Positions 6,641 through 46,280 of a stretch of 64,000 nt of DNA are shown here, piece after piece (position 1 is the first letter of the stretch; each line of letters begins with the position of its first letter). The stretch comes from Dillenia suffruticosa (Eukaryota; Streptophyta; Magnoliopsida; Dilleniales; Dilleniaceae). Position numbers and translations under genes: made by a program. A model generated the notes under the pieces. That model was not told the origin of the DNA. It saw only the letters and a program-made list of their open reading frames with translations, and made no database searches. The stretch lies in assembly GCA_033439265.1 (NCBI GenBank), contig JAVTVX010000010.1, positions 5,518,001 through 5,582,000 on the forward strand, written 5' to 3'.

Positions 6641-6648
6641 ATGGTCTA

Positions 6649-13528: not shown

Positions 13529-13533
13529 GTCTA

Positions 13534-27094: not shown

Positions 27095-27138
27095 TAAATA
27101 TATATGATATTTTAATTTATTTATTATATTTATTTGTA
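27095..27138 (+). repeat. 44-bp direct repeat, left border of the viral array
   Basis: An exact match to 46237-46280. The two copies enclose all viral sequence. It is followed by about 11 nt of unassigned filler (27139-27149) before recognisable viral DNA. Confidence 0.85.
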
Positions 27139-27610
27139 TACAGAAAATTAAAATATGGGATCCTTGGGTGGCAGAGCCGACCACTAATCACCACAATAAA
27201 CAAATAAATAAAGAAGATAAATAAATAAGAGAAGAGGTTAGTGAGGCGGCGTAGCCAGCCAAGCATATAAAGATAAATAAAAATTAGGATCAAAGATTTA
27301 TGGGCGGCAGAGCCGACCGCACTCTGGAGAGAGAGCTAGGAGAAGAGAAGAGTTAGATAGCATCATGAAATATAAACAATTTATTCATAAAAATAAATGA
27401 TTACATAAGATAAAGACAAGGAGCTTACATTTGAATACTTGCACCTTGGTCTTGATGGGGTTTTTCAATAATAAGAAGGGAAAGAGAGGGGACACTCAAG
27501 AAATTTGCATAATGCTCCCAAAGCTTTTCCTTCCAAGAATGTGCTCTCAAAGATGTTTGGTATTTTTCTCACCAAGTGATAACTTATGAAGACCAAAGAG
27601 AAATGACTTC

Positions 27611-27620
27611 ATTTATAGAA
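27611..27620 (-). promoter_or_regulatory. TATA box of the viral promoter, copy A
   Basis: The minus strand reads TTCTATAAAT. It lies 60-130 bp downstream (viral sense) of the repeat cluster and about 230 bp before the AATAAA signal. Transcription would run leftward, out of the array at 27095. Confidence 0.6.
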
Positions 27621-27679
27621 ATTTAGAAGGTTCCTGTTACTACACGGATGAACAGTGTAGTTTACTGTTACAACACGGG

Positions 27680-27748
27680 TGAATAGTACCGTATATGTGA
27701 ATAGTGCCAAATAGTACCGTGTGAATAGTACCGTATACATGAATAGTG
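27680..27748 (-). promoter_or_regulatory. Repeated GAATAGTACCGT motifs upstream of the viral TATA box
   Basis: Four or five near copies of (T)GAATAGT(A/G)CCGTATA-like strings are packed in 70 bp just upstream of the TATA box in viral sense. The same set recurs in copy C at 43721-43792. Clustered short repeats here suggest a promoter enhancer; binding factors are unknown. Confidence 0.5.
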
Positions 27749-28039
27749 TTTTACAAGCAGAGACTATACCAAATACAGGAAATGGTACTGATATTGGTAT
27801 ACCAGTTTTGAGATAATTGATTGACCGATAACAAAGTTTTATCAGTTTTAGGGCAACTGATTGGCCACTATTTTATTAATTTTGTTGGAGATGCCCTTTC
27901 GGGTTTTCATTCCAACTTAATGCTCTAACTTTTGCATAGGATGTTTTTAGGGTTTTCATCCTATCGAGCTCATAGCCGATTTTGCATGGAATAGAAGTTC
28001 CATCCAGCTAAAAAATTTTTTTTTTTTTTTTTTTTTTTT

Positions 28040-29431
28040 TTAAGTTAACAAGTCATCATTATCCATATCTATTATAGGGTCTGACTCAGAATCAGATAAT
28101 GCAGATTTGGAAGATGATCCTCGTTCACTTTGGAGCAACTGCTCCATGATTTGGAGATACTCGTCTTTAGATTTGGCTGCAGCAAGAAGAGCCTGAGCAT
28201 GAGATTTTTGGGCTAAAAAGGTTTGATCAGAAGGATCAGGTTTTAGAAGCCCATGAGTTTTGAGCCAAACTGAAACAGCTGGTTTAAGGATTTTATCAGG
28301 GATGCGAAAGGAATTCCACCATTTAACTTTGAATTTACGGATAAGAATGGTGGATCCGTCAGAAAATGCATAATCTAAATACCATTGGCTAACCCATGGT
28401 ACATAGAATTTGGAACAGAAAAGACATAGAGGTGAAAACTTCTTTTCTACCTCTGAGGGTTTGTATTGGGTTTTAAAGAGGTCAAAGGATTCTTTGACCG
28501 ATGGAACAAGAATATTGGGCAAAGATCCAAAAAATTTCCACCAATGGGGAAACCATGCCGGGTATTTATGAATTTGGGTTTTTTCATGGAAATAAAAGAG
28601 CCATGAATGGGTCCTTTTACTGTTTTGGATAAGAAATGTGTTATACCAGGCTTGAACATAATCCCAGTATGAGAAAATAGGACAGAAGTTTATCTTGGTT
28701 TTAAGGTTTACCGGAAAAGTTTTAGGTTTGGAAAGTTCCTGTCCCCAATCAGAAGGATGGATGACTTTCAAAATTTTACAAGTGGAATAAGAGGGAAACT
28801 GTTGTTCTGAGGAGAATTTAAAATGTTTGAACTCAGCACTTTCTGTTAATTCCAAAATGGTTTGATAATAATCAATTGTTTTGGATAAATCCCAAGGTTT
28901 ATAAAACCAATTTTTTAGAAAATACCCCTCCATAGTCTGGAAAGGGTCCTTTTGGGAAAATCCTTCGTCAATAGTCAAAATGTTTTGAGAATATATTTTC
29001 TCAATAAAACTAGAAGATTTTAGAGATTTTGGATCCGTTAAAACTAGGGTTTTACTACTGGTAGTAGTCAAAATTTTAGGATCCGCTTGAGACAAGGTTT
29101 TAGAAGATGAATCTCATTTTTCTCTGCTGGAAGGGAGAATAGAAGTTTTACCTGTTTTACCTGTGTGCTGAGTCGGGATTAAACTCAGGGTTGCTTTAAG
29201 GGTTTGAAACAAGTCAGGGCTCCACAAGTTTGGTTGATCTGGAACCGATTCGACCCATTTTTGGATTAGGGCGAGTCTGTCTTCAGACTGGGCTGCTGTT
29301 TTAAATGGGTTTTGGACTTCAGCCCTGTTCTGTGAGTCTTCCTCTTCGATCACCATTTCATACCATGATTTTATTGGTTTTGTCGAATCTATACCGATTT
29401 TTGCTTTGTCTTTAGTAGTTTTTCGTGGCAT
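28040..29431 (-). pseudogene. Viral ORF2, copy A (one nonsense codon)
   Basis: Full length is 463 codons from the ATG (complement of 29429-29431), but codon 106 is TGA (29114-29116), where copies B and C have GGA (Gly). A few private substitutions also separate it from B and C. The function of this protein is unknown; see copy B for description. Confidence 0.9.
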
Positions 29432-29467
29432 TTGATCTGCACAGAACAAATAAAGATTTCAGATTAT

Positions 29468-29659
29468 TTAAAGAGCAAATTCTTTCATATTAAGTCTAAT
29501 AAGCCAGATTCTGGTTTTATTGTTTTCGATGTTTGCACGAAGAATATTGCGATGTGCCCATCGCTGTTCGTGTTTTAGCTGTTCTTTGAAGAGTTTGATT
29601 TCAGCGTTATAACGATGGATTTTATTCTTCATCTCGAACAAGGTCTTCCAATACGCCAT
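29468..29659 (-). CDS. Viral small ORF (63 aa), copy A
   Basis: Lies between ORF1 and ORF2. The predicted protein is identical in all three copies. See copy B entry for description. Confidence 0.7.
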   Translation of the reverse strand: MAYWKTLFEMKNKIHRYNAEIKLFKEQLKHEQRWAHRNILRANIENNKTRIWLIRLNMKEFAL

Positions 29660-29682
29660 CTGCAAAAGAGGTTATAACAGTT

Positions 29683-32600
29683 TTATTTGTCCTGTAAAAA
29701 TTCTCTGGTTAGAAAATCAGGCAGAGAATTTCTTTCACCTTTGATATATTCAATATCAAAATAAAAAATAGATAATATAGCTTGCCATCGTGCAAAAATT
29801 TGTTTAGAAGCAATGTTTTGGACATCCTTTTGCAAAATTTCTTTTGCAGATTTACAATCGATACGTAATAAAAATTTTTGATTTAACAAGTCGCTTTGAA
29901 ATTTTGTAATGCATAAAACAATTGACAAAATTTCCTTTTTTATGGTAGAATAGTTTTTCTGGGTTTGATTCCAGTGACCAGAGGTATATTGGATTACAAC
30001 TTCTTTATGATCCTGGAGTTGTTTTAGGATTCCTCCATATCCTAAATCACTAGCATCGGTTTCAACAATTTTAGGGAGGCTAGGATTGGCAATATGAAGA
30101 CAAGGAATTTCTAGGATTTGTTTTTTAATGAGTCGGACAGTTTCGGTATGTTCATTTGTCCAAGGTTTAGGGTTTTTCTTTAATCTGTTATGAAGAGGTT
30201 GTGCAATTTTATTGATATTTGGAAAGAAATCTAGGACATAATTTAGACTTCCTAGAAATCTCTGAAGCTGAGTTTTATCAAGAATTTTATCTGGAAATTT
30301 GTTTGCAAATTCCAAAGATCTTTCTATTGGTTTTATGGTTCCACAAGTTATGTGGTGACCTAAAAATCTTATTCTTGTTTGGAATAAAGATATCTTTTTA
30401 GCTGATAAAACCAGTCCATTCTTTTTACAAACATAGAAGAATGTTTTGAGATTTTTAAAATGTTGTTCTATTGATGAGGAGAATATAAGTACATCATCAA
30501 TATAAACAATGCAGAATTCCGAGTATGGATTGAATATATCATTCATAATTCGTTGAAATTCTGAAGGTGCATTTTTTAAACCAAATGGCATAACATTCCA
30601 TTCGTATTGTCCAAATGGAACAGTAAACGCCGTTTTATATCTATCTTTAGGATGAATTTGGATTTGCCAAAATCCTGATTTCATATCGAATTTTGAAAAT
30701 ATGTTGGCGGAATTTAGTTTTTGTAATAAGTCTTTTTTGTTAGGGATTGGATAGCGGATCCATTTTAAAGCTTCATTTAGAGGTTTATAGTTTATGACAA
30801 GTCTAGGGGTTCCTCTTTCTATTTCTGAATTTTTGTTTACATAGAAAGCTGCACAACTCTATGGAGATCTGGATTTTGAAATTAATCCCTTGGATTCAAG
30901 GTCTTGAATTTCCTTTTTACAATATTGTTCTAATTCGGCATTCATTTGAATTGGCCTTGCTTTAGTAGGAATATTTCGTTCATCGAATCCTTTTTCATAT
31001 GGTATATCGACCATATGTTGTTTTCTATCCCAAAAGGCATTGGGAAGATCAGAACAGATATCGGTTTCAATGTTTTTCTGGATTTCAGAGATTTTTTGTT
31101 TTATAGAATTGGTTTGTAATTGTTGTTCAATCCTTTGGAGATCAATATGCTGTTTTAGATATAATAGGTCAAATTGTTTTTTCTGTATTAAAAGATTGAT
31201 TGAGTTTTCATGGATGGAAGCGGCTTTGATTAAATTTAAGTTTCTAGTTTTAGGAGGTTCTAGGAATGGAAAGAAGAGTTTTTCGGTTTTGTTTTTTGAT
31301 TTAATTCCATTGTATTCAACCTTATAAGGGGTAATAAGATTGATAAACGGAGTTCCCAGTATTACTGTTTGTCGGATGTCAGAAACTAGGACGAAAGTTG
31401 TTTTAATTGTGAATTTTTCATTTTGGATTCCTGCATCTAGTTTGGCAATTATATGTAATTTGGAACTATTTGCCGCAGATAGTCTTTCGCTAGTTTTTTC
31501 ATGAAATCTTTTTGGAATGAGATCTGCTTTTATGCAATTTAAGTCAGCTCCGGTATCGAATAGAGCGACCGTATCAATTTTAAAATTTTCGGATAATCTA
31601 AGTGTGATTTTTATAAGGTATTTTCGGGAAGTAATTTCCTTTAGGACGAAAAGGATTTCTTCAGGAAAGGTTTTATTGGTTTTTACGAGGTGTTGGATGG
31701 TCTGAGGATCTAAAGGATCCTCATCCGAATTTTCTTCATCACTGCTTGAATCAGTAACTACATTTTTGGCTTTTATTTGAGATAATAAGATCGAAATGGT
31801 TTTAGAATTTTCCTCTTGTTTGTGTTTTAATTCTTTTAATTCTTTTTTGATTGTTTTTATTTCTTCTTGCAATTCTGGAATTGTTGCAGAGGATTTTTTA
31901 TTGAATTTCTTTTTATTTAATATGGAAGTGAGATTGTACATACCGGTATTAATATGAGGAGTACTAGAAGGATTTTCAGAACTTCCTTCTAGAGATTGTT
32001 TTAATTGATCCAAACATTTTTTCTGGATTTCCTGATTGTTTATATGTTGAATGGCTTCCAGAATTAAGCTTTGTTCCTTGGTTATCATGTTTATATGTTT
32101 TGAATCTGAAGAGTCAGTATCGGATTCTGTTTTACTGGAACTGGTTATAAGTTCATCAATTTGAGGATTACTAGTAGAAGTTTCTGAACTGATTGTATCT
32201 GTATCAGAACTATCTACTAATAAAACTGAGATTTTATTTAGAATTTTTTCGTCCAAATGGAGTTCTCTAATCTTTTTAGATACTCTGCAATATTTGGAAG
32301 TATGTCCTTTTCTTCCACATTTGAAACATGTTATATCTTTTAATGATTTTGAGGTTGAAGGTTTTGAGATTGAAGGTTTCTCTTCCTTTTTGTATTGCTT
32401 AGTTTTACGAAATTTTTTGTAAGGTTTTTTATAATAATCCTCTTTATATTTTTTATAGGGTTTGAATTTTTTAGGATATTCTTTTTTAGAGTATTTTTTG
32501 GATTGTTTCTTACTGCATTCTCCATTGCAGGTTTTATGTTTATTAAGATCAAACTGGGCACAGAATGATCCTAATTCTTTTTTGGTTTTCTTCATTTCCC

Positions 32601-35358
32601 ATTTTAGATGTTTTTGGAGTTTTAAGTCTTGACAGATTTTAAGACCTTCCTTTTGTGTGAAGCTAACTAATTCACCGTAAGTAAGTTGGTCATATGGAAT
32701 AATTTGTTTTCCAAAAGTTTCACGAATGGTGTTCCTAACCTTTTCTCCTAACAAGGTTGGAAGTCCGGCAAGGAATTTTTCTTTCCAAAAGGGTTGATTA
32801 GAGTCTTCGCGAAGCATGACCCTGGATAGAAAGGTGGTTTTATACCATTGGAAGTCACTGAGTTTTTTACATCGGAGGTTGGATAAGAGATCGGTATTTT
32901 TATCTTTTAGATGGGATGAGTCGCCAATAAAATGAAGTGATATAGTGAATATTAGGGTTGCGACAGCATCTTGGATTGGTTCACCCAAATGATTTAAAAT
33001 TGGTTCACCTTCTTCACCAATTTGAATTGCATTTAAAATACTTAATTGTTGTTCTATATTGAGATGAAAATCCCACCATCCTTTTAATTGGCCAGAAAAT
33101 CCTGCGATAAGGAGTTCTGCAACTGTTTTATCGGTTGTTCCTTGTTGGGTTTTGTAGGCATTGGATGCCATTGTCATTTGTTGTAATGTATTCAGGATTT
33201 GGTATTCACTCATTCCATCTATATTCCATACATATATAGAATTGGCGTTGTATTTTGGCTGGACCAATATCTCGGGTTGATTACCTATTTCTAACTCAGG
33301 TAATCTGGTTTTAACATATTCGGATTTAGGAGTTTTCCAAAGAAGTTTGTTTATCTCAGGATTTTGTTCCTGAAAAGCTTCTTCTTCATCCTCATCTAAT
33401 TCGGATGAAAGGGTTTTATTTAGGACTGTAATATCTTGATTTACAGATTGAGGAGTGTCAGGAACAATCGGATTGGACTGTCCTGAAGATGACTCGATTT
33501 TACTGAGTTGAAGTTTTATGGCTTCCAAGAATTCTTGTTTATTGGTTTTGATTTCTTGGTTGGCTTGGTTCGAAATTTGATAGGGTTTGAAAATAGGGTC
33601 TTTTGATTTTTTAAGCTTTTCTATTTTATTAGACTCAGTAGGTTCTTTTTGTGATTTGTCGATTTTGGAAAGTTGTTTTCCAATTGTGTGTAAATGTGCA
33701 TTTGTATAATTATTTTGGATGATGATATTTTTTAAGTTTACAGAGTCATTTTCCTGAGGTTTTTTATAAGGACTCGCCTCAATGTTTTCTGTACCAACAG
33801 TGATTTTGATCGTCCGAAGAGGTGGATGATCAGACTCGATGTTTTCACCATCTTTGGTTTCCCATGAGGGTTTTTTGTTTCTTTTTGTGATAGGGTTGGC
33901 TGTTTTGAATGGATATTTAATGTTGTGTTTTTTAGTATACGTTTCAAGCCATGTGAAAAATAAAATATTTATTTTATTTTTTCTACAAAACTTAAAATGT
34001 TTATCTTGGATTTTGAAAATGTTTTCTCCAAAAGTTTTAAAAAACCAATTTCTTTTTTCTTTGTTTTTATCAGAGAAAAAATCATTTTCTAAATATTCTT
34101 TATTTATTTCAAAATCACTTTTGATGAGAATATTGAGTTTTGTCAAAATCTCATTTTCATCATATGTTTTATCAAAACCATTTTCTTTTTCTAAAACGTT
34201 TAATTCATTTTCCCTTCCAACGTTTTCTGTTATAGCTGAAGGTGTTGGAGAGGTTGGTTCTGAATCAATTGGGTTTTGTTCTTCTGTTTGAGAACGTGTA
34301 TAGACCGGTTGTGGGATTGTTTTTCCTAATACGATATTTTTTAAAGAGGTCGTCGGAATATCTGAGGTCGAATACCTCGGAGGTTTTATTGGGCTTTTAT
34401 CATGAAGATTTATAACGGATGGTAATTTTGAGATTCTTCCCAGATTTATATATTCAGACGATGTTGTTGATGTATCCGAAAATCTGGAGCTATAAAATGG
34501 TCTATCAAAACTTATTTTAACATTACCATCTGTATATTGTGTTATTTGTTTTATTCTGGTACTTGGTTCTGGAATGTCATTGTTTGATTTTGGTTGAACT
34601 GCTCCTTCTAGCATCCAATCTTCTGGAAGGGTTATTTCTTCCCATCTGATAGGTTTTGGAATAACCAGGTTGGATTTTGTAATATCGGTTTGGAGAAGAA
34701 GAGTTTCTCCTTTTTTGTGTTGAATTTTGTGTTTTGAGCCGAAGGCTGTTGTCATGGCTTTATAATGTATTTTATATATTAGAGCGACCGGAATTGATCC
34801 CTCCATCATATCATAATTATGTATTTTAACTTGTAGAATAAGGGATTTTAATATATTTTTATCATTTAAGGAGATTATAAGATTTGGAAAACAGTCGAAG
34901 GAAACTGGACCTTTACATAGACTGGATTCAACAGTTCCTAACAAGGAATCTGAGAAGTTATTATGTCTGGCATCCCTAAGAGTTACCAGAATAGAAGTAT
35001 TTAATCCTTCTCTTGTTAATGGTCTAAGACCGATTTGGACTAATCCGATATGGACATATTTATATCCTTTGGACATATGTTTTTCTAAAGATTTTTTGGA
35101 AAATAGTTGTATAGTTTCAAAAGATTTTAAAAGTTGAATATCTCTTTCTTCGGTTTTAATGGTATAATCTGTTTTAAAAAAACTGATTTTGGGTGTTTTG
35201 TATATTTGGTCTATACTTATTTTGGGTATCTCCCATTCATCTATTCCTTTTTCAAAATCTTCAATTGTTATTTCTTCACTGTTTATTATATCTTTAGTTC
35301 TTGAAGAACTTGACATAGAACTCGAAGAGCTAGTAGTTCTACAGAATATAGGGTTCAT
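29683..35358 (-). pseudogene. Viral polyprotein ORF1, copy A (one nonsense codon)
   Basis: Same length and reading frame as copy B (1891 codons from ATG at 35356-35358), but codon 1500 is TAG (30859-30861) where copy B has TGG (Trp). The stop lies at the start of the RT region, so this copy could make movement, coat and protease parts but no polymerase. Apart from the stop I count only four amino-acid differences from copy B (V/I, I/M, I/L and Y/D). Confidence 0.95.
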
Positions 35359-35545
35359 CGTTTTGATTCTGCACTGCAAATCCAACTATATACCTACGGA
35401 ACACTGGGATGTCCAACGGCCTTACTGCCCCTCCTGGGTCTTACTTCGCCTGGACCACCGGTGTCTAAAGGACTCGGTATATAATCAGATCTGAAGTTTA
35501 GAACTTCAAACAATTAAATCTATATGCTGTATAATACTATCCCCC
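35359..35545 (-). promoter_or_regulatory. Viral leader of copy A (primer site missing)
   Basis: Mirror image of 35574-35760. It stops short of the primer-binding site, which is present only on the copy B side of the junction. Confidence 0.8.
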
Positions 35546-35573
35546 ACTGGGGCTTCTTGGTATCAGAGCCACG
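35546..35573. other. 28-bp spacer at the head-to-head junction
   Basis: Symmetry is exact from 35545/35574 outward and lost between them. The spacer holds CACTGGGGCTTCT of unknown origin and the copy B primer-binding site. Confidence 0.85.
35558..35570 (+). promoter_or_regulatory. Primer-binding site for tRNA-Met, copy B
   Basis: TGGTATCAGAGCC is complementary to the 3' end of initiator tRNA-Met, the minus-strand primer of plant pararetroviruses. It marks the conventional start of the viral genome, 190 bp before the ORF1 ATG. Confidence 0.85.
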
Positions 35574-35760
35574 GGGGGATAGTATTATACAGCATATAGA
35601 TTTAATTGTTTGAAGTTCTAAACTTCAGATCTGATTATATACCGAGTCCTTTAGACACCGGTGGTCCAGGCGAAGTAAGACCCAGGAGGGGTAGTAAGGC
35701 CGTTGGACATCCCAGTGTTCCGTAGGTATATAGTTGGATTTGCAGTGCAGAATCAAAACG

Positions 35761-38700
35761 ATGAACCCTATATTCTGTAGAACTACTAGCTCTTCGAGTT
35801 CTATGTCAAGTTCTTCAAGAACTAAAGATATAATAAACAGTGAAGAAATAACAATTGAAGATTTTGAAAAAGGAATAGATGAATGGGAGATACCCAAAAT
35901 AAGTATAGACCAAATATACAAAACACCCAAAATCAGTTTCTTTAAAACAGATTATACCATTAAAACCGAAGAAAGAGATATTCAACTTTTAAAATCTTTT
36001 GAAACTATACAACTATTTTCCAAAAAATCTTTAGAAAAACATATGTCCAAAGGATATAAATATGTCCATATCGGATTAGTCCAAATCGGTCTTAGACCAT
36101 TAACAAGAGAAGGATTAAATACTTCTATTCTGGTAACTCTTAGGGATGCCAGACATAATAACTTCTCAGATTCCTTGTTAGGAACTGTTGAATCCAGTCT
36201 ATGTAAAGGTCCAGTTTCCTTCGACTGTTTTCCAAATCTTATAATCTCCTTAAATGATAAAAATATATTAAAATCCCTTATTCTACAAGTTAAAATACAT
36301 AATTATGATATGATGGAGGGATCAATTCCGGTCGCTCTAATATATAAAATACATTATAAAGCCATGACAACAGCCTTCGGCTCAAAACACAAAATTCAAC
36401 ACAAAAAAGGAGAAACTCTTCTTCTCCAAACCGATATTACAAAATCCAACCTGGTTATTCCAAAACCTATCAGATGGGAAGAAATAACCCTTCCAGAAGA
36501 TTGGATGCTAGAAGGAGCAGTTCAACCAAAATCAAACAATGACATTCCAGAACCAAGTACCAGAATAAAACAAATAACACAATATACAGATGGTAATGTT
36601 AAAATAAGTTTTGATAGACCATTTTATAGCTCCAGATTTTCGGATACATCAACAACATCGTCTGAATATATAAATCTGGGAAGAATCTCAAAATTACCAT
36701 CCGTTATAAATCTTCATGATAAAAGCCCAATAAAACCTCCGAGGTATTCGACCTCAGATATTCCGACGACCTCTTTAAAAAATATCGTATTAGGAAAAAC
36801 AATCCCACAACCGGTCTATACACGTTCTCAAACAGAAGAACAAAACCCAATTGATTCAGAACCAACCTCTCCAACACCTTCAGCTATAACAGAAAACGTT
36901 GGAAGGGAAAATGAATTAAACGTTTTAGAAAAAGAAAATGGTTTTGATAAAACATATGATGAAAATGAGATTTTGACAAAACTCAATATTCTCATCAAAA
37001 GTGATTTTGAAATAAATAAAGAATATTTAGAAAATGATTTTTTCTCTGATAAAAACAAAGAAAAAAGAAATTGGTTTTTTAAAACTTTTGGAGAAAACAT
37101 TTTCAAAATCCAAGATAAACATTTTAAGTTTTGTAGAAAAAATAAAATAAATATTTTATTTTTCACATGGCTTGAAACGTATACTAAAAAACACAACATT
37201 AAATATCCATTCAAAACAGCCAACCCTATCACAAAAAGAAACAAAAAACCCTCATGGGAAACCAAAGATGGTGAAAACATCGAGTCTGATCATCCACCTC
37301 TTCGGACGATCAAAATCACTGTTGGTACAGAAAACATTGAGGCGAGTCCTTATAAAAAACCTCAGGAAAATGACTCTGTAAACTTAAAAAATATCATCAT
37401 CCAAAATAATTATACAAATGCACATTTACACACAATTGGAAAACAACTTTCCAAAATCGACAAATCACAAAAAGAACCTACTGAGTCTAATAAAATAGAA
37501 AAGCTTAAAAAATCAAAAGACCCTATTTTCAAACCCTATCAAATTTCGAACCAAGCCAACCAAGAAATCAAAACCAATAAACAAGAATTCTTGGAAGCCA
37601 TAAAACTTCAACTCAGTAAAATCGAGTCATCTTCAGGACAGTCCAATCCGATTGTTCCTGACACTCCTCAATCTGTAAATCAAGATATTACAGTCCTAAA
37701 TAAAACCCTTTCATCCGAATTAGATGAGGATGAAGAAGAAGCTTTTCAGGAACAAAATCCTGAGATAAACAAACTTCTTTGGAAAACTCCTAAATCCGAA
37801 TATGTTAAAACCAGATTACCTGAGTTAGAAATAGGTAATCAACCCGAGATATTGGTCCAGCCAAAATACAACGCCAATTCTATATATGTATGGAATATAG
37901 ATGGAATGAGTGAATACCAAATCCTGAATACATTACAACAAATGACAATGGCATCCAATGCCTACAAAACCCAACAAGGAACAACCGATAAAACAGTTGC
38001 AGAACTCCTTATCGCAGGATTTTCTGGCCAATTAAAAGGATGGTGGGATTTTCATCTCAATATAGAACAACAATTAAGTATTTTAAATGCAATTCAAATT
38101 GGTGAAGAAGGTGAACCAATTTTAAATCATTTGGGTGAACCAATCCAAGATGCTGTCGCAACCCTAATATTCACTATATCACTTCATTTTATTGGCGACT
38201 CATCCCATCTAAAAGATAAAAATACCGATCTCTTATCCAACCTCCGATGTAAAAAACTCAGTGACTTCCAATGGTATAAAACCACCTTTCTATCCAGGGT
38301 CATGCTTCGCGAAGACTCTAATCAACCCTTTTGGAAAGAAAAATTCCTTGCCGGACTTCCAACCTTGTTAGGAGAAAAGGTTAGGAACACCATTCGTGAA
38401 ACTTTTGGAAAACAAATTATTCCATATGACCAACTTACTTACGGTGAATTAGTTAGCTTCACACAAAAGGAAGGTCTTAAAATCTGTCAAGACTTAAAAC
38501 TCCAAAAACATCTAAAATGGGAAATGAAGAAAACCAAAAAAGAATTAGGATCATTCTGTGCCCAGTTTGATCTTAATAAACATAAAACCTGCAATGGAGA
38601 ATGCAGTAAGAAACAATCCAAAAAATACTCTAAAAAAGAATATCCTAAAAAATTCAAACCCTATAAAAAATATAAAGAGGATTATTATAAAAAACCTTAC

Positions 38701-41436
38701 AAAAAATTTCGTAAAACTAAGCAATACAAAAAGGAAGAGAAACCTTCAATCTCAAAACCTTCAACCTCAAAATCATTAAAAGATATAACATGTTTCAAAT
38801 GTGGAAGAAAAGGACATACTTCCAAATATTGCAGAGTATCTAAAAAGATTAGAGAACTCCATTTGGACGAAAAAATTCTAAATAAAATCTCAGTTTTATT
38901 AGTAGATAGTTCTGATACAGATACAATCAGTTCAGAAACTTCTACTAGTAATCCTCAAATTGATGAACTTATAACCAGTTCCAGTAAAACAGAATCCGAT
39001 ACTGACTCTTCAGATTCAAAACATATAAACATGATAACCAAGGAACAAAGCTTAATTCTGGAAGCCATTCAACATATAAACAATCAGGAAATCCAGAAAA
39101 AATGTTTGGATCAATTAAAACAATCTCTAGAAGGAAGTTCTGAAAATCCTTCTAGTACTCCTCATATTAATACCGGTATGTACAATCTCACTTCCATATT
39201 AAATAAAAAGAAATTCAATAAAAAATCCTCTGCAACAATTCCAGAATTGCAAGAAGAAATAAAAACAATCAAAAAAGAATTAAAAGAATTAAAACACAAA
39301 CAAGAGGAAAATTCTAAAACCATTTCGATCTTATTATCTCAAATAAAAGCCAAAAATGTAGTTACTGATTCAAGCAGTGATGAAGAAAATTCGGATGAGG
39401 ATCCTTTAGATCCTCAGACCATCCAACACCTCGTAAAAACCAATAAAACCTTTCCTGAAGAAATCCTTTTCGTCCTAAAGGAAATTACTTCCCGAAAATA
39501 CCTTATAAAAATCACACTTAGATTATCCGAAAATTTTAAAATTGATACGGTCGCTCTATTCGATACCGGAGCTGACTTAAATTGCATAAAAGCAGATCTC
39601 ATTCCAAAAAGATTTCATGAAAAAACTAGCGAAAGACTATCTGCGGCAAATAGTTCCAAATTACATATAATTGCCAAACTAGATGCAGGAATCCAAAATG
39701 AAAAATTCACAATTAAAACAACTTTCGTCCTAGTTTCTGACATCCGACAAACAATAATACTGGGAACTCCGTTTATCAATCTTATTACCCCTTATAAGGT
39801 TGAATACAATGGAATTAAATCAAAAAACAAAACCGAAAAACTCTTCTTTCCATTCCTAGAACCTCCTAAAACTAGAAACTTAAATTTAATCAAAGCCGCT
39901 TCCATCCATGAAAACTCAATCAATCTTTTAATGCAGAAAAAACAATTTGACCTATTATATCTAAAACAGCATATTGATCTCCAAAGGATTGAACAACAAT
40001 TACAAACCAATTCTATAAAACAAAAAATCTCTGAAATCCAGAAAAACATTGAAACCGATATCTGTTCTGATCTTCCCAATGCCTTTTGGGATAGAAAACA
40101 ACATATGGTCGATCTACCATATGAAAAAGGATTCGATGAACGAAATATTCCTACTAAAGCAAGGCCAATTCAAATGAATGCCGAATTAGAACAATATTGT
40201 AAAAAGGAAATTCAAGACCTTGAATCCAAGGGATTAATTTCAAAATCCAGATCTCCATGGAGTTGTGCAGCTTTCTATGTAAACAAAAATTCAGAAATAG
40301 AAAGAGGAACCCCTAGACTTGTCATAAACTATAAACCTCTAAATGAAGCTTTAAAATGGATCCGCTATCCAATCCCTAACAAAAAAGACTTATTACAAAA
40401 ACTAAATTCCGCCAACATATTTTCAAAATTCGATATGAAATCAGGATTTTGGCAAATCCAAATTCATCCTAAAGATAGATATAAAACGGCGTTTACTGTT
40501 CCATTTGGACAATACGAATGGAATGTTATGCCATTTGGTTTAAAAAATGCACCTTCAGAATTTCAACGAATTATGAATGATATATTCAATCCATACTCGG
40601 AATTCTGCATTGTTTATATTGATGATGTACTTATATTCTCCTCATCAATAGAACAACATTTTAAAAATCTCAAAACATTCTTTTATGTTTGTAAAAAGAA
40701 TGGACTGGTTTTATCAGCTAAAAAGATATCTTTATTCCAAACAAGAATAAGATTTTTAGGTCACCACATAACTTGTGGAACCATAAAACCAATAGAAAGA
40801 TCTTTGGAATTTGCAAACAAATTTCCAGATAAAATTCTTGATAAAACTCAGCTTCAGAGATTTCTAGGAAGTCTAAATTATGTCCTAGATTTCTTTCCAA
40901 ATATCAATAAAATTGCACAACCTCTTCATAACAGATTAAAGAAAAACCCTAAACCTTGGACAAATGAACATACCGAAACTGTCCGACTCATTAAAAAACA
41001 AATCCTAGAAATTCCTTGTCTTCATATTGCCAATCCTAGCCTCCCTAAAATTGTTGAAACCGATGCTAGTGATTTAGGATATGGAGGAATCCTAAAACAA
41101 CTCCAGGATCATAAAGAAGTTGTAATCCAATATACCTCTGGTCACTGGAATCAAACCCAGAAAAACTATTCTACCATAAAAAAGGAAATTTTGTCAATTG
41201 TTTTATGCATTACAAAATTTCAAAGCGACTTGTTAAATCAAAAATTTTTATTACGTATCGATTGTAAATCTGCAAAAGAAATTTTGCAAAAGGATGTCCA
41301 AAACATTGCTTCTAAACAAATTTTTGCACGATGGCAAGCTATATTATCTATTTTTGATTTTGATATTGAATATATCAAAGGTGAAAGAAATTCTCTGCCT
41401 GATTTTCTAACCAGAGAATTTTTACAGGACAAATAA
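35761..41436 (+). CDS. Viral polyprotein ORF1, copy B: MP-CP-PR-RT-RNase H (intact)
   Basis: An open frame of 1891 aa from ATG 35761; a longer frame would need a non-ATG start at 35734. Domains in order: a serine-rich N-terminus; a 30K-superfamily movement protein at about 50-310 (with the LRDARHNN block); a long charged linker; a coat protein region with GQLKGWWDFHL (W761) and a basic Lys-rich stretch; a CCHC zinc knuckle CFKCGRKGHTSKYC (1011-1024); an aspartic protease with active site DTGA (D1268); a reverse transcriptase with YIDD (1619-1622); and RNase H beginning at ETDAS (D1768). It would be cleaved by its own protease. No stop or frameshift is present. There is no viral promoter upstream of it in this array, because copy A's mirror image lies there, so expression from this locus is doubtful. 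Confidence 0.96.
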   Translation: MNPIFCRTTSSSSSMSSSSRTKDIINSEEITIEDFEKGIDEWEIPKISIDQIYKTPKISFFKTDYTIKTEERDIQLLKSFETIQLFSKKSLEKHMSKGYKYVHIGLVQIGLRPLTREGLNTSILVTLRDARHNNFSDSLLGTVESSLCKGPVSFDCFPNLIISLNDKNILKSLILQVKIHNYDMMEGSIPVALIYKIHYKAMTTAFGSKHKIQHKKGETLLLQTDITKSNLVIPKPIRWEEITLPEDWMLEGAVQPKSNNDIPEPSTRIKQITQYTDGNVKISFDRPFYSSRFSDTSTTSSEYINLGRISKLPSVINLHDKSPIKPPRYSTSDIPTTSLKNIVLGKTIPQPVYTRSQTEEQNPIDSEPTSPTPSAITENVGRENELNVLEKENGFDKTYDENEILTKLNILIKSDFEINKEYLENDFFSDKNKEKRNWFFKTFGENIFKIQDKHFKFCRKNKINILFFTWLETYTKKHNIKYPFKTANPITKRNKKPSWETKDGENIESDHPPLRTIKITVGTENIEASPYKKPQENDSVNLKNIIIQNNYTNAHLHTIGKQLSKIDKSQKEPTESNKIEKLKKSKDPIFKPYQISNQANQEIKTNKQEFLEAIKLQLSKIESSSGQSNPIVPDTPQSVNQDITVLNKTLSSELDEDEEEAFQEQNPEINKLLWKTPKSEYVKTRLPELEIGNQPEILVQPKYNANSIYVWNIDGMSEYQILNTLQQMTMASNAYKTQQGTTDKTVAELLIAGFSGQLKGWWDFHLNIEQQLSILNAIQIGEEGEPILNHLGEPIQDAVATLIFTISLHFIGDSSHLKDKNTDLLSNLRCKKLSDFQWYKTTFLSRVMLREDSNQPFWKEKFLAGLPTLLGEKVRNTIRETFGKQIIPYDQLTYGELVSFTQKEGLKICQDLKLQKHLKWEMKKTKKELGSFCAQFDLNKHKTCNGECSKKQSKKYSKKEYPKKFKPYKKYKEDYYKKPYKKFRKTKQYKKEEKPSISKPSTSKSLKDITCFKCGRKGHTSKYCRVSKKIRELHLDEKILNKISVLLVDSSDTDTISSETSTSNPQIDELITSSSKTESDTDSSDSKHINMITKEQSLILEAIQHINNQEIQKKCLDQLKQSLEGSSENPSSTPHINTGMYNLTSILNKKKFNKKSSATIPELQEEIKTIKKELKELKHKQEENSKTISILLSQIKAKNVVTDSSSDEENSDEDPLDPQTIQHLVKTNKTFPEEILFVLKEITSRKYLIKITLRLSENFKIDTVALFDTGADLNCIKADLIPKRFHEKTSERLSAANSSKLHIIAKLDAGIQNEKFTIKTTFVLVSDIRQTIILGTPFINLITPYKVEYNGIKSKNKTEKLFFPFLEPPKTRNLNLIKAASIHENSINLLMQKKQFDLLYLKQHIDLQRIEQQLQTNSIKQKISEIQKNIETDICSDLPNAFWDRKQHMVDLPYEKGFDERNIPTKARPIQMNAELEQYCKKEIQDLESKGLISKSRSPWSCAAFYVNKNSEIERGTPRLVINYKPLNEALKWIRYPIPNKKDLLQKLNSANIFSKFDMKSGFWQIQIHPKDRYKTAFTVPFGQYEWNVMPFGLKNAPSEFQRIMNDIFNPYSEFCIVYIDDVLIFSSSIEQHFKNLKTFFYVCKKNGLVLSAKKISLFQTRIRFLGHHITCGTIKPIERSLEFANKFPDKILDKTQLQRFLGSLNYVLDFFPNINKIAQPLHNRLKKNPKPWTNEHTETVRLIKKQILEIPCLHIANPSLPKIVETDASDLGYGGILKQLQDHKEVVIQYTSGHWNQTQKNYSTIKKEILSIVLCITKFQSDLLNQKFLLRIDCKSAKEILQKDVQNIASKQIFARWQAILSIFDFDIEYIKGERNSLPDFLTREFLQDK

Positions 41437-41459
41437 AACTGTTATAACCTCTTTTGCAG

Positions 41460-41651
41460 ATGGCGTATTGGAAGACCTTGTTCGAGATGAAGAATAAAAT
41501 CCATCGTTATAACGCTGAAATCAAACTCTTCAAAGAACAGCTAAAACACGAACAGCGATGGGCACATCGCAATATTCTTCGTGCAAACATCGAAAACAAT
41601 AAAACCAGAATCTGGCTTATTAGACTTAATATGAAAGAATTTGCTCTTTAA
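41460..41651 (+). CDS. Viral small ORF (63 aa), copy B
   Basis: Starts 23 nt after the ORF1 stop and ends 36 nt before the ORF2 ATG. The predicted protein (MAYWKTLFEM ... NMKEFAL) is short, basic and likely helical, with heptad-like spacing of hydrophobic residues. The same protein is found unchanged in copies A and C, whereas ORF1 and ORF2 have acquired changes. The tight spacing suggests translation by reinitiation or leaky scanning on a polycistronic RNA. I do not recognise a family; the chance that it is spurious is real but reduced by its conservation. Confidence 0.65.
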   Translation: MAYWKTLFEMKNKIHRYNAEIKLFKEQLKHEQRWAHRNILRANIENNKTRIWLIRLNMKEFAL

Positions 41652-41687
41652 ATAATCTGAAATCTTTATTTGTTCTGTGCAGATCAA

Positions 41688-43074
41688 ATGCCACGAAAAA
41701 CTACTAAAGACAAAGCAAAAATCGGTATAGATTCGACAAAACCAATAAAATCATGGTATGAAATGGTGATCGAAGAGGAAGACTCACAGAACAGGGCTGA
41801 AGTCCAAAACCCATTTAAAACAGCAGCCCAGTCTGAAGACAGACTCGCCCTAATCCAAAAATGGGTCGAATCGGTTCCAGATCAACCAAACTTGTGGAGC
41901 CCTGACTTGTTTCAAACCCTTAAAGCAACCCTGAGTTTAATCCCGACTCAGCACACAGGTAAAACAGGTAAAACTTCTATTCTCCCTTCCAGCAGAGAAA
42001 AAGGAGATTCATCTTCTAAAACCTTGTCTCAAGCGGATCCTAAAATTTTGACTACTACCAGTAGTAAAACCCTAGTTTTAACGGATCCAAAATCTCTAAA
42101 ATCTTCTAGTTTTATTGAGAAAATATATTCTCAAAACATTTTGACTATTGACGAAGGATTTTCCCAAAAGGACCCTTTCCAGACTATGGAGGGGTATTTT
42201 CTAAAAAATTGGTTTTATAAACCTTGGGATTTATCCAAAACAATTGATTATTATCAAACCATTTTGGAATTAACAGAAAGTGCTGAGTTCAAACATTTTA
42301 AATTCTCCTCAGAACAACAGTTTCCCTCTTATTCCACTTGTAAAATTTTGAAAGTCATCCATCCTTCTGATTGGGGACAGGAACTTTCCAAACCTAAAAC
42401 TTTTCCGGTAAACCTTAAAACCAAGATAAACTTCTGTCCTATTTTCTCATACTGGGATTATGTTCAAACCTGGTATAACACATTTCTTATCCAAAATAGT
42501 AAAAGGACCCATTCATGGCTCTTTTATTTCCATGAAAAAACCCAAATTCATAAATACCCGGCATGGTTTCCCCATTGGTGGAAATTTTTTGGATCTTTGC
42601 CCGATATTCTTGTTCCATCGGTCAAAGAATCCTTTGACCTCTTTAAAACCCAATACAAACCCTCAGAGGTAGAAAAGAAGTTTTCACCTCTATGTCTTTT
42701 CTGTTCCAAATTCTATGTACCATGGGTTAGCCAATGGTATTTAGATTATGCCTTTTCTGACGGATCCACCATTCTTATCCGTAAATTCAAAGTTAAATGG
42801 TGGAATTCCTTTCGCATCCCTTATAAAATCCTTAAACCAGCTGTTTCAGTTTGGCTCAAAACTCATGGGCTTCTGAAACCTGATCCTTCTGATCAAACCT
42901 TTTTAGCCCAAAAATCTCATGCTCAGACTCTTCTTGCTGCAGCCAAATCTAAAGACGAGTATCTCCAAATCATGGAGCAGTTGCTCCAAAGTGAACGAGG
43001 ATCATCTTCCAAATCTGCATTATCTGATTCTGAGTCAGACCCTATAATAGATCTGGATAATGATGACTTGTTAA

Positions 43075-43079
<5 letters not shown>
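41688..43079 (+). CDS. Viral ORF2 protein of unknown function (463 aa), copy B (intact)
   Basis: The ATG at 41688 opens a 463-aa frame ending TAA at 43077-43079, directly followed by a homopolymer A tract. The N-terminal ~115 residues are hydrophilic (MPRKTTKDKAK start). A central part is unusually rich in Trp, Phe and Tyr (for example PAWFPHWWKFFG and YVPWVSQWYLDYAF). A pair of cysteines, LCLFC, precedes the latter block. The last ~40 residues are serine-rich and acidic. Florendoviruses are known to carry a downstream ORF of unknown role, and this is probably its equivalent. I see no transactivator, protease or polymerase motif. No function should be assigned. Confidence 0.88.

Positions 43080-43110
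<31 letters not shown>
43077..43110 (+). repeat. Homopolymer A tract at the ORF2 stop codon, copy B
   Basis: The stop codon TAA runs straight into more than 30 A residues. The same tract is present at the same place in copies A (about 28017-28041) and C (about 44057-44083) with different lengths. In all copies viral intergenic sequence continues beyond it, so it is encoded, not a captured mRNA tail. Confidence 0.85.
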
Positions 43111-43115
<5 letters not shown>

Positions 43116-43196
43116 AGCTGGATGGAACTTCTATTCCATGCAAAATCGGCTATGAGCTCGATAGGATGAAAACCCTAAAAACATCCTATGCAAAAA
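43111..43196 (+). other. Start of viral intergenic region, copy B (truncated)
   Basis: Only about 85 bp of intergenic region follow the A tract before the sequence switches strand and copy. The TATA box, repeats and poly(A) signal are absent from copy B. Confidence 0.85.
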
Positions 43197-44051
43197 TATG
43201 GGATCCTTGGGTGGCAGAGCCGACCACTAATCACCACAATAAACAAATAAATAAAGAAGATAAATAAATAAGAGAAGAGGTTAGTGAGGCGGCGTAGCCA
43301 GCCAAGCATATAAAGATAAATAAAAATTAGGATCAAAGATTTATGGGCGGCAGAGCCGACCGCACTCTGGAGAGAGAGCTAGGAGAAGAGAAGAGTTAGA
43401 TAGCATCATGAAATATAAACAATTTATTCATAAAAATAAATGATTACATAAGATAAAGACAAGGAGCTTACATTTGAATACTTGCACCTTGGTCTTGATG
43501 GGGTTTTTCAATAATAAGAAGGGAAAGAGAGGGGACACTCAAGAAATTTGCATAATGCTCCCAAAGCTTTTCCTTCCAAGAATGTGCTCTCAAAGATGTT
43601 TGGTATTTTTCTCACCAAGTGATAACTTATGAAGACCAAAGAGAAATGGCTTCATTTATAGAAATTTAGAAGGTTCCTGTTATTACACGGATGAACAGTG
43701 TAGTTTACTGTTACAACACGGGTGAATAGTACCGTATATGTGAATAGTGCCAAATAGTACCGTGTGAATAGTACCGTATACATGAATAGTGTTTTACAAG
43801 CAGAGACTATACCAAATACAGGAAATGGTACTGATATTGGTATACCAGTTTTGAGATAATTGATTGACCGATAACAAAGTTTTATCAGTTTTAGGGCAAC
43901 TGATTGGCCACTATTTTATTAATTTTGTTGGAGATGCCCTTTCGGGTTTTCATTCCAACTTAATGCTCTAACTTTTGCATAGGATGTTTTTAGGGTTTTC
44001 ATCCTATCGAGCTCATAGCCGATTTTGCATGGAATAGAAGTTCCATCCAGC

Positions 44052-44081
<30 letters not shown>
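43193..44081 (-). promoter_or_regulatory. Viral intergenic region of copy C
   Basis: A near-identical direct repeat of the copy A intergenic region, with repeats at 43721-43792, the TATA box complement at 43654-43663 and the AATAAA complement at 43423-43428. Its left edge joins copy B through a shared AAAA. A promoter here would point leftward into the antisense strand of copy B ORF2. Confidence 0.8.
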
Positions 44082-44083
<2 letters not shown>

Positions 44084-45471
44084 AAGTTAACAAGTCATCA
44101 TTATCCAGATCTATTATAGGGTCTGACTCAGAATCAGATAATGCAGATTTGGAAGATGATCCTCGTTCACTTTGGAGCAACTGCTCCATGATTTGGAGAT
44201 ACTCGTCTTTAGATGGCTGCAGCAAGAAGAGCCTGAGCATGAGATTTTTGGGCTAAAAAGGTTTGATCAGAAGGATCAGGTTTTAGAAGCCCATGAGTTT
44301 TGAGCCAAACTGAAACAGCTGGTTTAAGGATTTTATCAGGGATGCGAAAGGAATTCCACCATTTAACTTTGAATTTACGGATAAGAATGGTGGATCCGTC
44401 AGAAAAGGCATAATCTAAATACCATTGGCTAACCCATGGTACATAGAATTTGGAACAGAAAAGACATAGAGGTGAAAATTTCTTTTCTACCTCTGAGGGT
44501 TTGTATTGGGTTTTAAAGAGGTCAAAGGATTCTTTGACCGATGGAACAAGAATATCGGGCAAAGATCCAAAAAATTTCCACCAATGGGGAAACCATGCCG
44601 GGTATTTATGAATTTGGGTTTTTTCATGGAAATAAAAGAGCCATGAATGGGTCCTTTTACTGTTTTGGATAAGAAATGTGTTATACCAGGCTTGAACATA
44701 ATCCCAGTATGAGAAAATAGGACAGAAGTTTATCTTGGTTTTAAGGTTTACCGGAAAAGTTTTAGGTTTGGAAAGTTCCTGTCCCCAATCAGAAGGATGG
44801 ATGACTTTCAAAATTTTACAAGTGGAATAAGAGGGAAACTGTTGTTCTGAGGAGAATTTAAAATGTTTGAACTCAGCACTTTCCGTTAATTCCAAAATGG
44901 TTTGATAATAATCAATTTTTTTAGATAAATCCCAAGGTTTATAAAACCAATTTTTTAGAAAATACCCCTCCATAGTCTGGAAAGGGTCCTTTTGGGAAAA
45001 TCCTTCGTCAATAGTCAAAATGTTTTGAGAATATATTTTCTCAATAAAACTAGAAGATTTTAGAGATTTTGGATCCGTTAAAACTAGGGTTTTACTACTG
45101 GTAGTAGTCAAAATTTTAGGATCCGCTTGAGACAAGGTTTTAGAAGATGAATCTCCTTTTTCTCTGCTGGAAGGGAGAATAGAAGTTTTACCTGTTTTAC
45201 CTGTGTGCTGAGTCGGGATTAAACTCAGGGTTGCTTTAAGGGTTTGAAACAAGTCAGGGCTCCACAAGTTTGGTTGATCTGGAACCGATTCGACCCATTT
45301 TTGGATTAGGGCGAGTCTGTCTTCAGACTGGGCTGCTGTTTTAAATGGGTTTTGGGCTTCAGCCCTGTTCTGTGAGGCTTCCTCTTCGATCACCATTTTA
45401 TACCATGATTTTATTGGTTTTGTCGAATCTATACCGATTTTTGCTTTGTCTTTAGTAGTTTTTCGTGGCAT
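44082..45471 (-). pseudogene. Viral ORF2, copy C (2-bp frameshift)
   Basis: Open from ATG 45471 to a premature stop at 44209, after about 420 codons. Two T residues present in copy A are missing near 44214-44215, shifting the frame and replacing the serine-rich acidic tail. The rest of the tail sequence is still present out of frame to 44082. Confidence 0.9.
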
Positions 45472-45507
45472 TTGATCTGCACAGAACAAATAAAGATTTT
45501 AGATTAT

Positions 45508-45699
45508 TTAAAGAGCAAATTCTTTCATATTAAGTCTAATAAGCCAGATTCTGGTTTTATTGTTTTCGATGTTTGCACGAAGAATATTGCGATGTGCCCA
45601 TCGCTGTTCGTGTTTTAGCTGTTCTTTGAAGAGTTTGATTTCAGCGTTATAACGATGGATTTTATTCTTCATCTCGAATAAGGTCTTCCAATACGCCAT
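45508..45699 (-). CDS. Viral small ORF (63 aa), copy C
   Basis: Same predicted protein as in copies A and B, between the ORF1 remnant and ORF2. Confidence 0.65.
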   Translation of the reverse strand: MAYWKTLFEMKNKIHRYNAEIKLFKEQLKHEQRWAHRNILRANIENNKTRIWLIRLNMKEFAL

Positions 45700-45722
45700 C
45701 TGCAAAAGAGGTTATAACAGTT

Positions 45723-46144
45723 TTATTTGTCCTGTAAAAATTCTCTGGTTAGAAAATCAGGCAGAGAATTTCTTTCACCTTTGATATATTCAATATCAAA
45801 ATCAAAAATAGATAATATAGCTTGCCATCGTGCAAAAATTTGTTTAGAAGCAATGTTTTGGACATCCTTTTGCAAAATTTCTTTTGCAGATTTACAATCG
45901 ATACGTAATAAAAATTTTTGATTTAACAAGTCGCTTTGAAATTTTGTAATGCATAAAACAATTGACAAAATTTCCTTTTTTATGGTAGAATAGTTTTTCT
46001 GGGTTTGATTCCAGTGACCAGAGGTATATTGGATTACAACTTCTTTATGATCTTGGAGTTGTTTTAGGATTCCTCCATATCCTAAATCACTAGCATCGGT
46101 TTCAACAATTTTAGGGAGGCTAGGATTGGCAATATGAAGACAAG
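45723..46144 (-). pseudogene. Viral ORF1 remnant, copy C (RNase H end only)
   Basis: Only about the last 140 codons of ORF1 remain, starting just before the RNase H block. Homology to copy A stops abruptly at 46144, where the mosaic begins. Confidence 0.92.
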
Positions 46145-46236
46145 CATATAAAGACCCATTTGGACTAATCCGATATGTCAAAAATTTTACAGCATATAGA
46201 TTATACAGCATATAGATTTAATTGTGGCTCTGATGT
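46145..46236. other. Scrambled mosaic at the right end of the viral array
   Basis: Short pieces abut: a string like the intergenic AAGCATATAAAGA (46143-46154); a movement-domain scrap (46153-46176, matching 35028-35052 with one mismatch, minus orientation); a copy of host flank TCAAAAATTTTA (46177-46189, matching 46291-46303); two overlapping leader scraps in plus orientation (46190-46203 and 46202-46224, matching 35589-35611); and TGGCTCTGAT (46225-46234), the complement of part of the primer-binding site. This is templated filler, typical of end-joining repair. Confidence 0.8.
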
Positions 46237-46280
46237 TAAATATATATGATATTTTAATTTATTTATTATATTTATTTGTA
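46237..46280 (+). repeat. 44-bp direct repeat, right border of the viral array
   Basis: Exact copy of 27095-27138. Host sequence leading to the RhoGAP gene follows. Confidence 0.85.

What the first reader, a model, noticed from the sequence alone, without database searches (positions are those of the whole stretch)
27923..43196. A ~7.6-kb near-perfect palindrome of an endogenous pararetrovirus
Copies A and B are mirror images around a 28-bp spacer (exact symmetry from 35545/35574 outward). Large palindromes with so short a spacer are unstable in eukaryotic chromosomes. If real and transcribed, the locus would make a long viral hairpin RNA and so could be a natural source of siRNAs against the related exogenous virus. 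The palindrome is seen in sequence; the silencing role is inference.
Basis: partly seen in the sequence, partly recalled or inferred. Interest (0 to 1): 0.9.

Follow-up and report, generated by a model that had tools for sequence, protein, structure and literature searches.

The report
Head-to-head viral fossils forming a palindrome
A plant chromosome carries two nearly identical copies of an ancient plant virus joined head to head as a 15-kilobase palindrome, best explained as viral DNA pasted in during repair of a broken chromosome; if it is transcribed, its RNA would fold on itself and could feed antiviral silencing, but that is untested.

Summary
The palindrome is real in the assembly. Arms A (28042-35545) and B (35574-43077) mirror each other with 17 differences in 7,504 columns and a 28-bp spacer. 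It is part of a larger insert, about 27139-46236: X (intergenic/promoter region), A, B, X', and a truncated third copy C. An exact 44-bp host direct repeat flanks the insert, with a 92-nt patchwork filler at its right end. The virus is florendovirus-like (Caulimoviridae); the host is probably Dillenia or a relative.

The axis sits on the tRNA-Met primer-binding site. Of 38 other copies examined, 18 also begin within -25 to +27 nt of it. Best explanation: linear viral DNAs opened at that discontinuity were joined head to head and captured in one repair event.

New here: the arms are identical over 3.8 kb, where three close copies elsewhere carry 7-10 private changes each, while the outer arms diverge normally. 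That suggests arm-to-arm gene conversion.

The layout (X' promoter, B antisense, A sense, X poly(A) signal) would make a hairpin RNA; no RNA data were available. Precedents exist: a cotton head-to-head pair, and tomato inverted-repeat loci making 22-nt siRNA. New member of a known kind.

The parts
27095..27138 (+). left copy of a 44-bp direct repeat of host AT-rich DNA (target-site-duplication-like)
   Evidence: 44/44 identical to 46237-46280; sequence read
27139..27929 (-). X: viral intergenic region with a TATA-like box (27617) and, downstream of it, AATAAA (27385) on the - strand; stops about 205 bp short of the PBS
   Evidence: 449 of its 791 bases match L007 upstream of the PBS at 98.4%; L011, L014, L016 and L021 match it over 786-791 bases at 91-95%; end compared; motifs (a further AATAAA at 27877 lies upstream of the TATA-like box)
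27930..35545 (-). Arm A: viral copy on - strand from about PBS +17 to the end of ORF2; ORF1 interrupted (open pieces 30859-35385 and 29683-30684), ORF2 open piece 28040-29095
35546..35573 (+). 28-bp spacer: one extra A (35546), then B's sequence from PBS -11 to +16
   Evidence: compared with other copies
35558..35570 (+). tRNA-Met primer-binding site TGGTATCAGAGCC, at the palindrome axis
   Evidence: same motif at the start of other copies
35547..43195 (+). Arm B: viral copy on + strand from PBS -11 to the end of ORF2; ORF1 35734-41436 (MP, coat, protease, RT, RNase H), ORF2 41670-43079
43196..43972 (-). X': second copy of the intergenic/promoter region (TATA-like 43660, AATAAA 43428), joined to B's end at an A-rich microhomology
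   Evidence: 2 internal substitutions against X; motifs
43973..46144 (-). C: third viral copy, 5'-truncated in the RNase H region
46145..46236 (+). 92-nt patchwork filler with pieces of viral ORF1 and leader, and shorter matches to X, PBS and the host right flank
   Evidence: longest exact match to the insert 26 nt, against at most 15 in 300 shuffles
46237..46280 (+). right copy of the 44-bp direct repeat
35941..39753 (+). stretch of arm B identical to arm A (31366-35178), bounded by differences: proposed gene-conversion tract

Best explanation
The locus is an endogenous florendovirus-like insertion. Several linear viral DNAs, opened at or near the reverse-transcription discontinuity at the tRNA-Met primer-binding site (PBS), were joined end to end and captured during repair of one break in AT-rich host DNA. 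Two of them were joined PBS end to PBS end, which makes the palindrome. Junction microhomology and patchwork filler fit polymerase-theta-type end joining (inferred). After insertion the arms mutated like other copies, except that a ~3.8-kb stretch of each arm was made identical, most likely by arm-to-arm gene conversion. If transcribed from the viral promoter in X', the RNA would run B-antisense then A-sense and fold into a ~7.5-kb hairpin, a potential siRNA source (not shown).
For: Viral identity. Insert bracketed by an exact 44-bp repeat, with a filler holding viral patches. Axis on the PBS. Of 38 other copies examined, 18 begin between about -25 and +27 nt of the PBS, 9 of them at -9 to -11 where B begins at -11; 2 break at -44 and -85; 18 have more viral sequence upstream. 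The tandem junction in L010 carries the PBS twice. A second PBS-to-PBS head-to-head pair lies on C21. Conversion: 0 of 17 arm differences fall in 3.8 kb (P about 1e-4 for the longest gap). Over that stretch C27, C2 and C8 have 7, 10 and 8 private changes, A 0, B 0, A+B shared 4; over the outer 2.0 kb A has 5, B 4, C 7, C27 5, A+B shared 3. C:G>T:A changes are 32 of 55 and lean to CG/CHG sites (15 of 32, background 26%, P 0.01), as for methylated host DNA, so many changes probably post-date insertion.
Against: No reads: assembler or polisher homogenisation could also make the inner arms identical, though two differences survive within 400 bp of the axis. Tract limits were chosen after seeing the data; only the longest-gap test is free of that. 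The C21 pair shows no homogenisation in the 2.65 kb read. A and B share 3 outer changes that C lacks, so they may stem from one viral molecule. X and X' end within about 12 bp of each other (27139 against the X position 27150), which independent random breaks would not predict. In the filler only the 26-nt and 27-nt (96%) patches exceed what shuffles give; the 11-15-nt matches alone prove nothing. AATAAA occurs 8 times in B antisense and 20 times in A sense, so a full-length hairpin transcript may be cut short. Polymerase theta is inferred from junction style only.
Confidence: 0.75

Rival explanations
1. Assembly artefact: the inverted arrangement, or at least the identity of the inner arms, comes from fold-back reads, misjoining or polishing.
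For: Inner arms identical over 3.8 kb; at least 40 other places with related copies make misassembly possible.
Against: A fold-back read mirrors the flanks as well, but here the arms end in different contexts (X and host on the left; X' and C on the right). The arms carry 17 differences, 2 of them near the axis. A 44-bp repeat brackets the insert, and the axis falls at a viral landmark used by other loci. The window has no N.
Confidence: 0.12
2. The palindrome arose after insertion of a single copy, by inverted duplication (fold-back or break-induced replication).
For: A and B share 3 outer changes that C and the other compared copies lack, and 4 inner changes that the other compared copies lack (C does not reach there).
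Against: Outer arms differ nearly as much from each other (10) as from another locus (13 to C27). B's start at PBS -11 is a recurrent terminus of other insertions, not a random fold-back point. The filler and the 44-bp repeat enclose all copies together.
Confidence: 0.12
3. The identical inner stretch is not gene conversion: A and B were recombinant viral genomes sharing that stretch, and insertion was very recent.
For: The virus behind the close copies had low diversity: C27, C2 and C8 are 99.6-99.7% identical to B over the inner piece.
Against: Changes look post-insertion: CG/CHG-leaning transitions; 20 of 30 changed codons in the inner piece alter the protein, one to a stop. Rates in the outer arms equal those of C and C27, so the inner arms should each have about 8 private changes and have none.
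Confidence: 0.2
4. The locus is an inert fossil: no hairpin transcript and no silencing role.
For: Endogenous caulimovirids studied so far carry silencing marks such as DNA methylation and H3K9me2 (review PMC10377300, section 16); internal AATAAA signals lie in the read-through path; the mutation spectrum suggests methylation.
Against: The promoter-like region X' faces into the palindrome and X beyond it carries a poly(A) signal; inverted-repeat caulimovirid loci in tomato and soybean make 22-nt siRNAs (PMC10377300, section 16).
Confidence: 0.55

Closest known systems
eCPRVE locus on cotton chromosome A04 (PMC10458927; section 13 whole, passages of abstract and discussion)
   Same: About 15 kb, two near-full-length endogenous caulimovirid copies head to head, 98.98% alike
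   Different: A different caulimovirid with six or more ORFs and a transactivator-like ORF. In the parts I read, no axis position, flanking duplication, third copy or conversion tract is described
Transcriptionally competent siRNA areas (TSAs) in tomato (Valli et al., known here only through review PMC10377300, section 16)
   Same: Rearranged endogenous caulimovirids in inverted-repeat form; hairpin RNA predicted
   Different: There 22-nt siRNA and transcript degradation were reported; here no RNA evidence
Endogenous florendoviruses (Geering et al. 2014, PMC4241990; abstract, sections 6 and 11, passages)
   Same: Two-ORF layout, large ORF1 polyprotein, ORF2 without known homology, tRNA-Met site taken as genome start, capture near AT-rich repeats
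   Different: The word 'inverted' has 0 hits in its main text; the formal AP-RT-RH1 clade test was not done here
ERTBV in rice and TPVL in tobacco (PMC526188; passages only)
   Same: Junctions prefer the intergenic region and the discontinuities of the open circular DNA; integration after reverse transcription proposed
   Different: Other viruses; highly rearranged; 'palindrom' and 'head-to-head' have 0 hits in its main text
Sex-chromosome palindromes of man and willow (PMC3723533, PMC7023750; search listing with abstract starts only)
   Same: Arm-to-arm gene conversion keeps palindrome arms alike
   Different: Those are large sex-chromosome palindromes; here a viral insertion

Membership tests
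Caulimoviridae (endogenous) | Movement protein, caulimovirid coat domain, aspartic protease, RT and RNase H domains | tested here: met
   PF01107, PF22909, PF00077, PF00078, PF17919/PF17917 in three separate ORF1 pieces
Caulimoviridae (endogenous) | tRNA-Met primer-binding site at genome start | tested here: met
   TGGTATCAGAGCC at 35558-35570 and at the start of other copies; that this motif is the tRNA-Met site is recalled; PMC4241990 uses the tRNA-Met consensus as genome start
Florendovirus | Two ORFs: ORF1 205-216 kDa polyprotein, ORF2 45-58 kDa without known homology; genome 7.2-8.5 kb | tested here: met
   ORF1 1,900 and ORF2 469 codons from the first TTG, masses estimated from length only; ORF2 has no Pfam match and 9 database relatives, among them Hevea, Citrus, Primulina and Erythranthe; two pairs of like-oriented copies 8,504-8,505 bp apart
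Florendovirus | Falls in the florendovirus clade on AP-RT-RH1 sequence | not tested
   No named florendovirus references were available; a caulimovirid closer to PVCV can have a superficially similar layout (PMC4241990, section 6)
siRNA-producing inverted-repeat caulimovirid locus (TSA-like) | Inverted-repeat layout of a rearranged caulimovirid | tested here: met
siRNA-producing inverted-repeat caulimovirid locus (TSA-like) | Transcription and high 22-nt siRNA density | not testable with these tools
   No RNA or small-RNA reads
Palindrome with arm-to-arm gene conversion | Arms more alike than their age predicts, in tracts | tested here: met
   assembly homogenisation not excluded
Polymerase-theta-type capture of foreign DNA | Junction microhomology and templated filler from nearby sequence | tested here: met
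   (two filler patches beyond shuffles); the criterion is recalled, and the enzyme is not testable

The most novel reading that the evidence does not exclude
The array is a self-contained, naturally assembled hairpin-RNA gene: the viral promoter in X' drives RNA through B antisense and A sense to the viral poly(A) signal in X, giving near-full-length viral dsRNA and siRNA against related virus and against the other copies in the genome. Arm-to-arm gene conversion keeps the two strands of the hairpin matched over time, so the silencing source renews itself instead of decaying.
Probability: 0.15. Interest if true: 0.85.

Novelty: new member of a known kind. Interest (0 to 1): 0.5.

Why it matters
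It gives a detailed anatomy (termini, filler, flanking duplication, relatives) of how a virus without an integrase becomes a head-to-head chromosomal palindrome, with the PBS discontinuity supplying the joining ends. If the conversion tract holds, palindromic viral fossils can be kept matched by recombination, which bears on how long hairpin-type antiviral small-RNA loci can last in plants.

Tried and rejected
Considered X as host DNA: rejected, because it matches the region upstream of the PBS in other viral copies. Considered that X and X' end exactly at the PBS: rejected after reading L007, where about 205 more viral bases follow. Considered a fold-back (snap-back) priming origin at the axis: no convincing microhomology seen by eye; not formally tested. 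Rfam search of the window at gathering scores: 0 matches.

Junction counts: the automatic sorting labelled 24 of 38 copies as breaking near the PBS. In one search, L012 and L032 are alignments split by an indel that run on upstream, and L022 and L023 have further viral sequence upstream after a rearrangement at -79; L009 breaks at -44 and L036 at -85 (or diverges there). That leaves 18 of 38. L004 was placed at -11 by the script but by eye shares bases to about -25, so it is not among the 9 at -9 to -11. In some of the 18 (L004, L037, the C21 pair) the neighbouring sequence is viral in another arrangement. Two of the 40 other places were not in the count: C15:19602083 (divergent) and the minus copy of the C21 pair (it starts at lead base 9, i.e. 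at the PBS). Only 40 of 146 first-look candidates were scored, so copy numbers are lower bounds, and the copies found contain the leader by construction.

Dropped rows: one search aligned 8 of 10 inner pieces (without L057 and L062, short matches) and 7 of 10 outer pieces (without L044, rearranged, and L047 and L052, no match). In its outer table the C8 row has 119+7 changes because the match ends early (1,839 of 2,063 bases); that row was not used. One search used 5 outer loci, without C8.

Full report
OBSERVATION. The palindrome is in the sequence. The repeat finder gives inverted arms 28016-35550 and 35569-43103, and blastn of the window against itself aligns 27930-43195 to its own reverse complement at 99.58%. 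Read by eye, the mirror starts at 35545/35574 with a 28-bp spacer, exactly as reported. Over 7,504 mirrored columns (28042-35545 against 35574-43077) there are 17 differences. The poly(A) tract at the outer ends varies in length.

THE WHOLE INSERT. The palindrome is the middle of a larger insert. Left of A lies X (27139-27929); right of B lies X' (43196-43972), a direct copy of X with 2 internal substitutions, followed by C, a third viral copy truncated in the RNase H region at 46144. Then come 92 nt of filler and an AT-rich 44-bp host sequence that is repeated exactly, 44 of 44, just left of X (27095-27138 and 46237-46280). The filler contains 26 nt of viral leader and 27 nt (96%) of ORF1, plus shorter matches: 15 nt of leader, 14 nt of X, 11 nt of the primer-binding site, and 14 nt found in the host flank just outside the insert. 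Its longest exact match to the insert is 26 nt; 300 shuffles reach at most 15, so the shorter matches are not significant alone. X' is joined to B at an A-rich microhomology. One capture event during break repair explains all of this; patchwork filler is the style of polymerase-theta end joining known from T-DNA insertion (my knowledge; papers seen only as a search listing).

WHAT THE VIRUS IS. Three separate pieces of ORF1 match movement protein, caulimovirus coat domain, retroviral protease, reverse transcriptase and RNase H models. ORF2 (469 codons) has no Pfam match and 9 database relatives, the named ones in Hevea, Citrus, Primulina and Erythranthe. Two ORFs of these sizes, and two pairs of like-oriented copies 8,504-8,505 bp apart, fit the florendovirus layout in PMC4241990 (section 6). 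The genus was not tested by a tree. The host is probably Dillenia or a close relative: the neighbouring sugar-transporter ORF is 96% identical over 92% of its length to a Dillenia turbinata protein (a second one 94%), the other 118 listed hits being at 68-78%. The genome held is 596 Mb in 37 contigs.

WHY THE AXIS IS WHERE IT IS. The spacer holds TGGTATCAGAGCC, the tRNA-Met primer-binding site at which caulimovirid minus-strand synthesis starts and where virion DNA has a discontinuity (recalled; PMC4241990 counts genomes from this site). B begins 11 nt before it and A about 17 nt into the genome. I read the 5' junctions of 38 of the 40 other places. In 18 of 38 the contiguous viral sequence begins between about -25 and +27 nt of the site, 9 of them at -9 to -11 like B; two break at -44 and -85; 18 have more viral sequence upstream (with the corrections given under Tried and rejected). 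In L010 a tandem junction carries the site twice. So linear DNA opened at this discontinuity seems a common integrating form in this genome. Preferred junctions at discontinuities were already proposed for rice and tobacco pararetroviruses (passages of PMC526188). A second head-to-head pair on C21 again has both copies starting at the site, 413 bp apart, with arms 92.4% alike over the 2,651 columns read; pieces 5 kb or more out on either side held no match. By its divergence it is older, so head-to-head pairs can persist, though here with a longer spacer, and it shows no homogenisation in the part read.

ARM EVOLUTION. The 17 arm differences are clustered: none lies in B 35941-39753 (3.8 kb; P about 1e-4 for so long a gap). 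With other loci as outgroups, in this stretch the close copies C27, C2 and C8 have 7, 10 and 8 private changes, while A has 0 and B 0, and 4 are shared by A and B. In the outer 2.0 kb, A has 5, B 4, C 7 and C27 5, and 3 are shared by A and B. If all lineages mutate alike, finding all 25 inner private changes in three of five lineages has P = 3e-6, but the tract limits were picked after the fact. Gene conversion between arms is the simplest reading. Polishing or assembly homogenisation is the main rival, weakened by the two differences that survive within 400 bp of the axis. C:G to T:A changes make 32 of 55, 15 of them at CG/CHG sites against 26% background (P 0.01), as expected for methylated chromosomal DNA. 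About 2.2 private changes per kb per copy would be roughly 0.3 My at 6.5e-9 per site per year, or about 1 My at slower woody-plant rates (recalled rates, not calibrated here).

FUNCTION. X and X' carry, on the - strand, a TATA-like box and a downstream AATAAA. A transcript starting in X' and running left would pass its own leader, B in antisense, the axis, A in sense, and then X with its poly(A) signal: a hairpin transcription unit. This follows from layout only. Against it: it must pass the AATAAA in X' itself, 8 in B antisense and 20 in A sense, and caulimovirid fossils studied so far carry silencing marks. In its favour: endogenous caulimovirids in inverted-repeat form make 22-nt siRNAs in tomato and soybean, and florendovirus small RNAs were found in eight plants (PMC10377300 section 16; PMC4241990 section 11).

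NOVELTY. A 15-kb head-to-head endogenous caulimovirid pair is already known from cotton (98.98% alike; PMC10458927, section 13). In the searches of the held open-access library made here (listings only, except the papers named) I saw no report of arm-to-arm conversion in such a palindrome, nor of this locus. I therefore call it a new member of a known kind, of moderate interest.

Noticed in passing
L028 / C21:11215178-11216398; arms read in L063 and L064: A second, more diverged head-to-head pair of the same virus family, both copies starting at the primer-binding site, 413 bp apart, arms 92.4% alike over 2,651 columns.
   Followed up: partly
L010 (C19:11786086-11787306, near 1088-1115): Tandem junction with the primer-binding site twice in a row, suggesting linear viral DNA with short terminal redundancy around the discontinuity.
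   Followed up: partly
L015, L024, L029, L030 and window 35546: Several insertions have an A just before CTGGGG/CTGGAG at the terminus where copies that run on upstream mostly have C; possibly an untemplated base added at the viral DNA end (by eye).
   Followed up: no
L068 (C9:17228351-17230365): An inverted pair of the viral intergenic region within a complex multi-copy locus.
   Followed up: no
window 13527-14306 / 24854-25627 and 6208-6648 / 24420-24860: Dispersed direct repeats (85-89%) upstream of the viral insert.
   Followed up: no
window 62160-63590: AT-rich tandem-repeat region, GC 20%.
   Followed up: no
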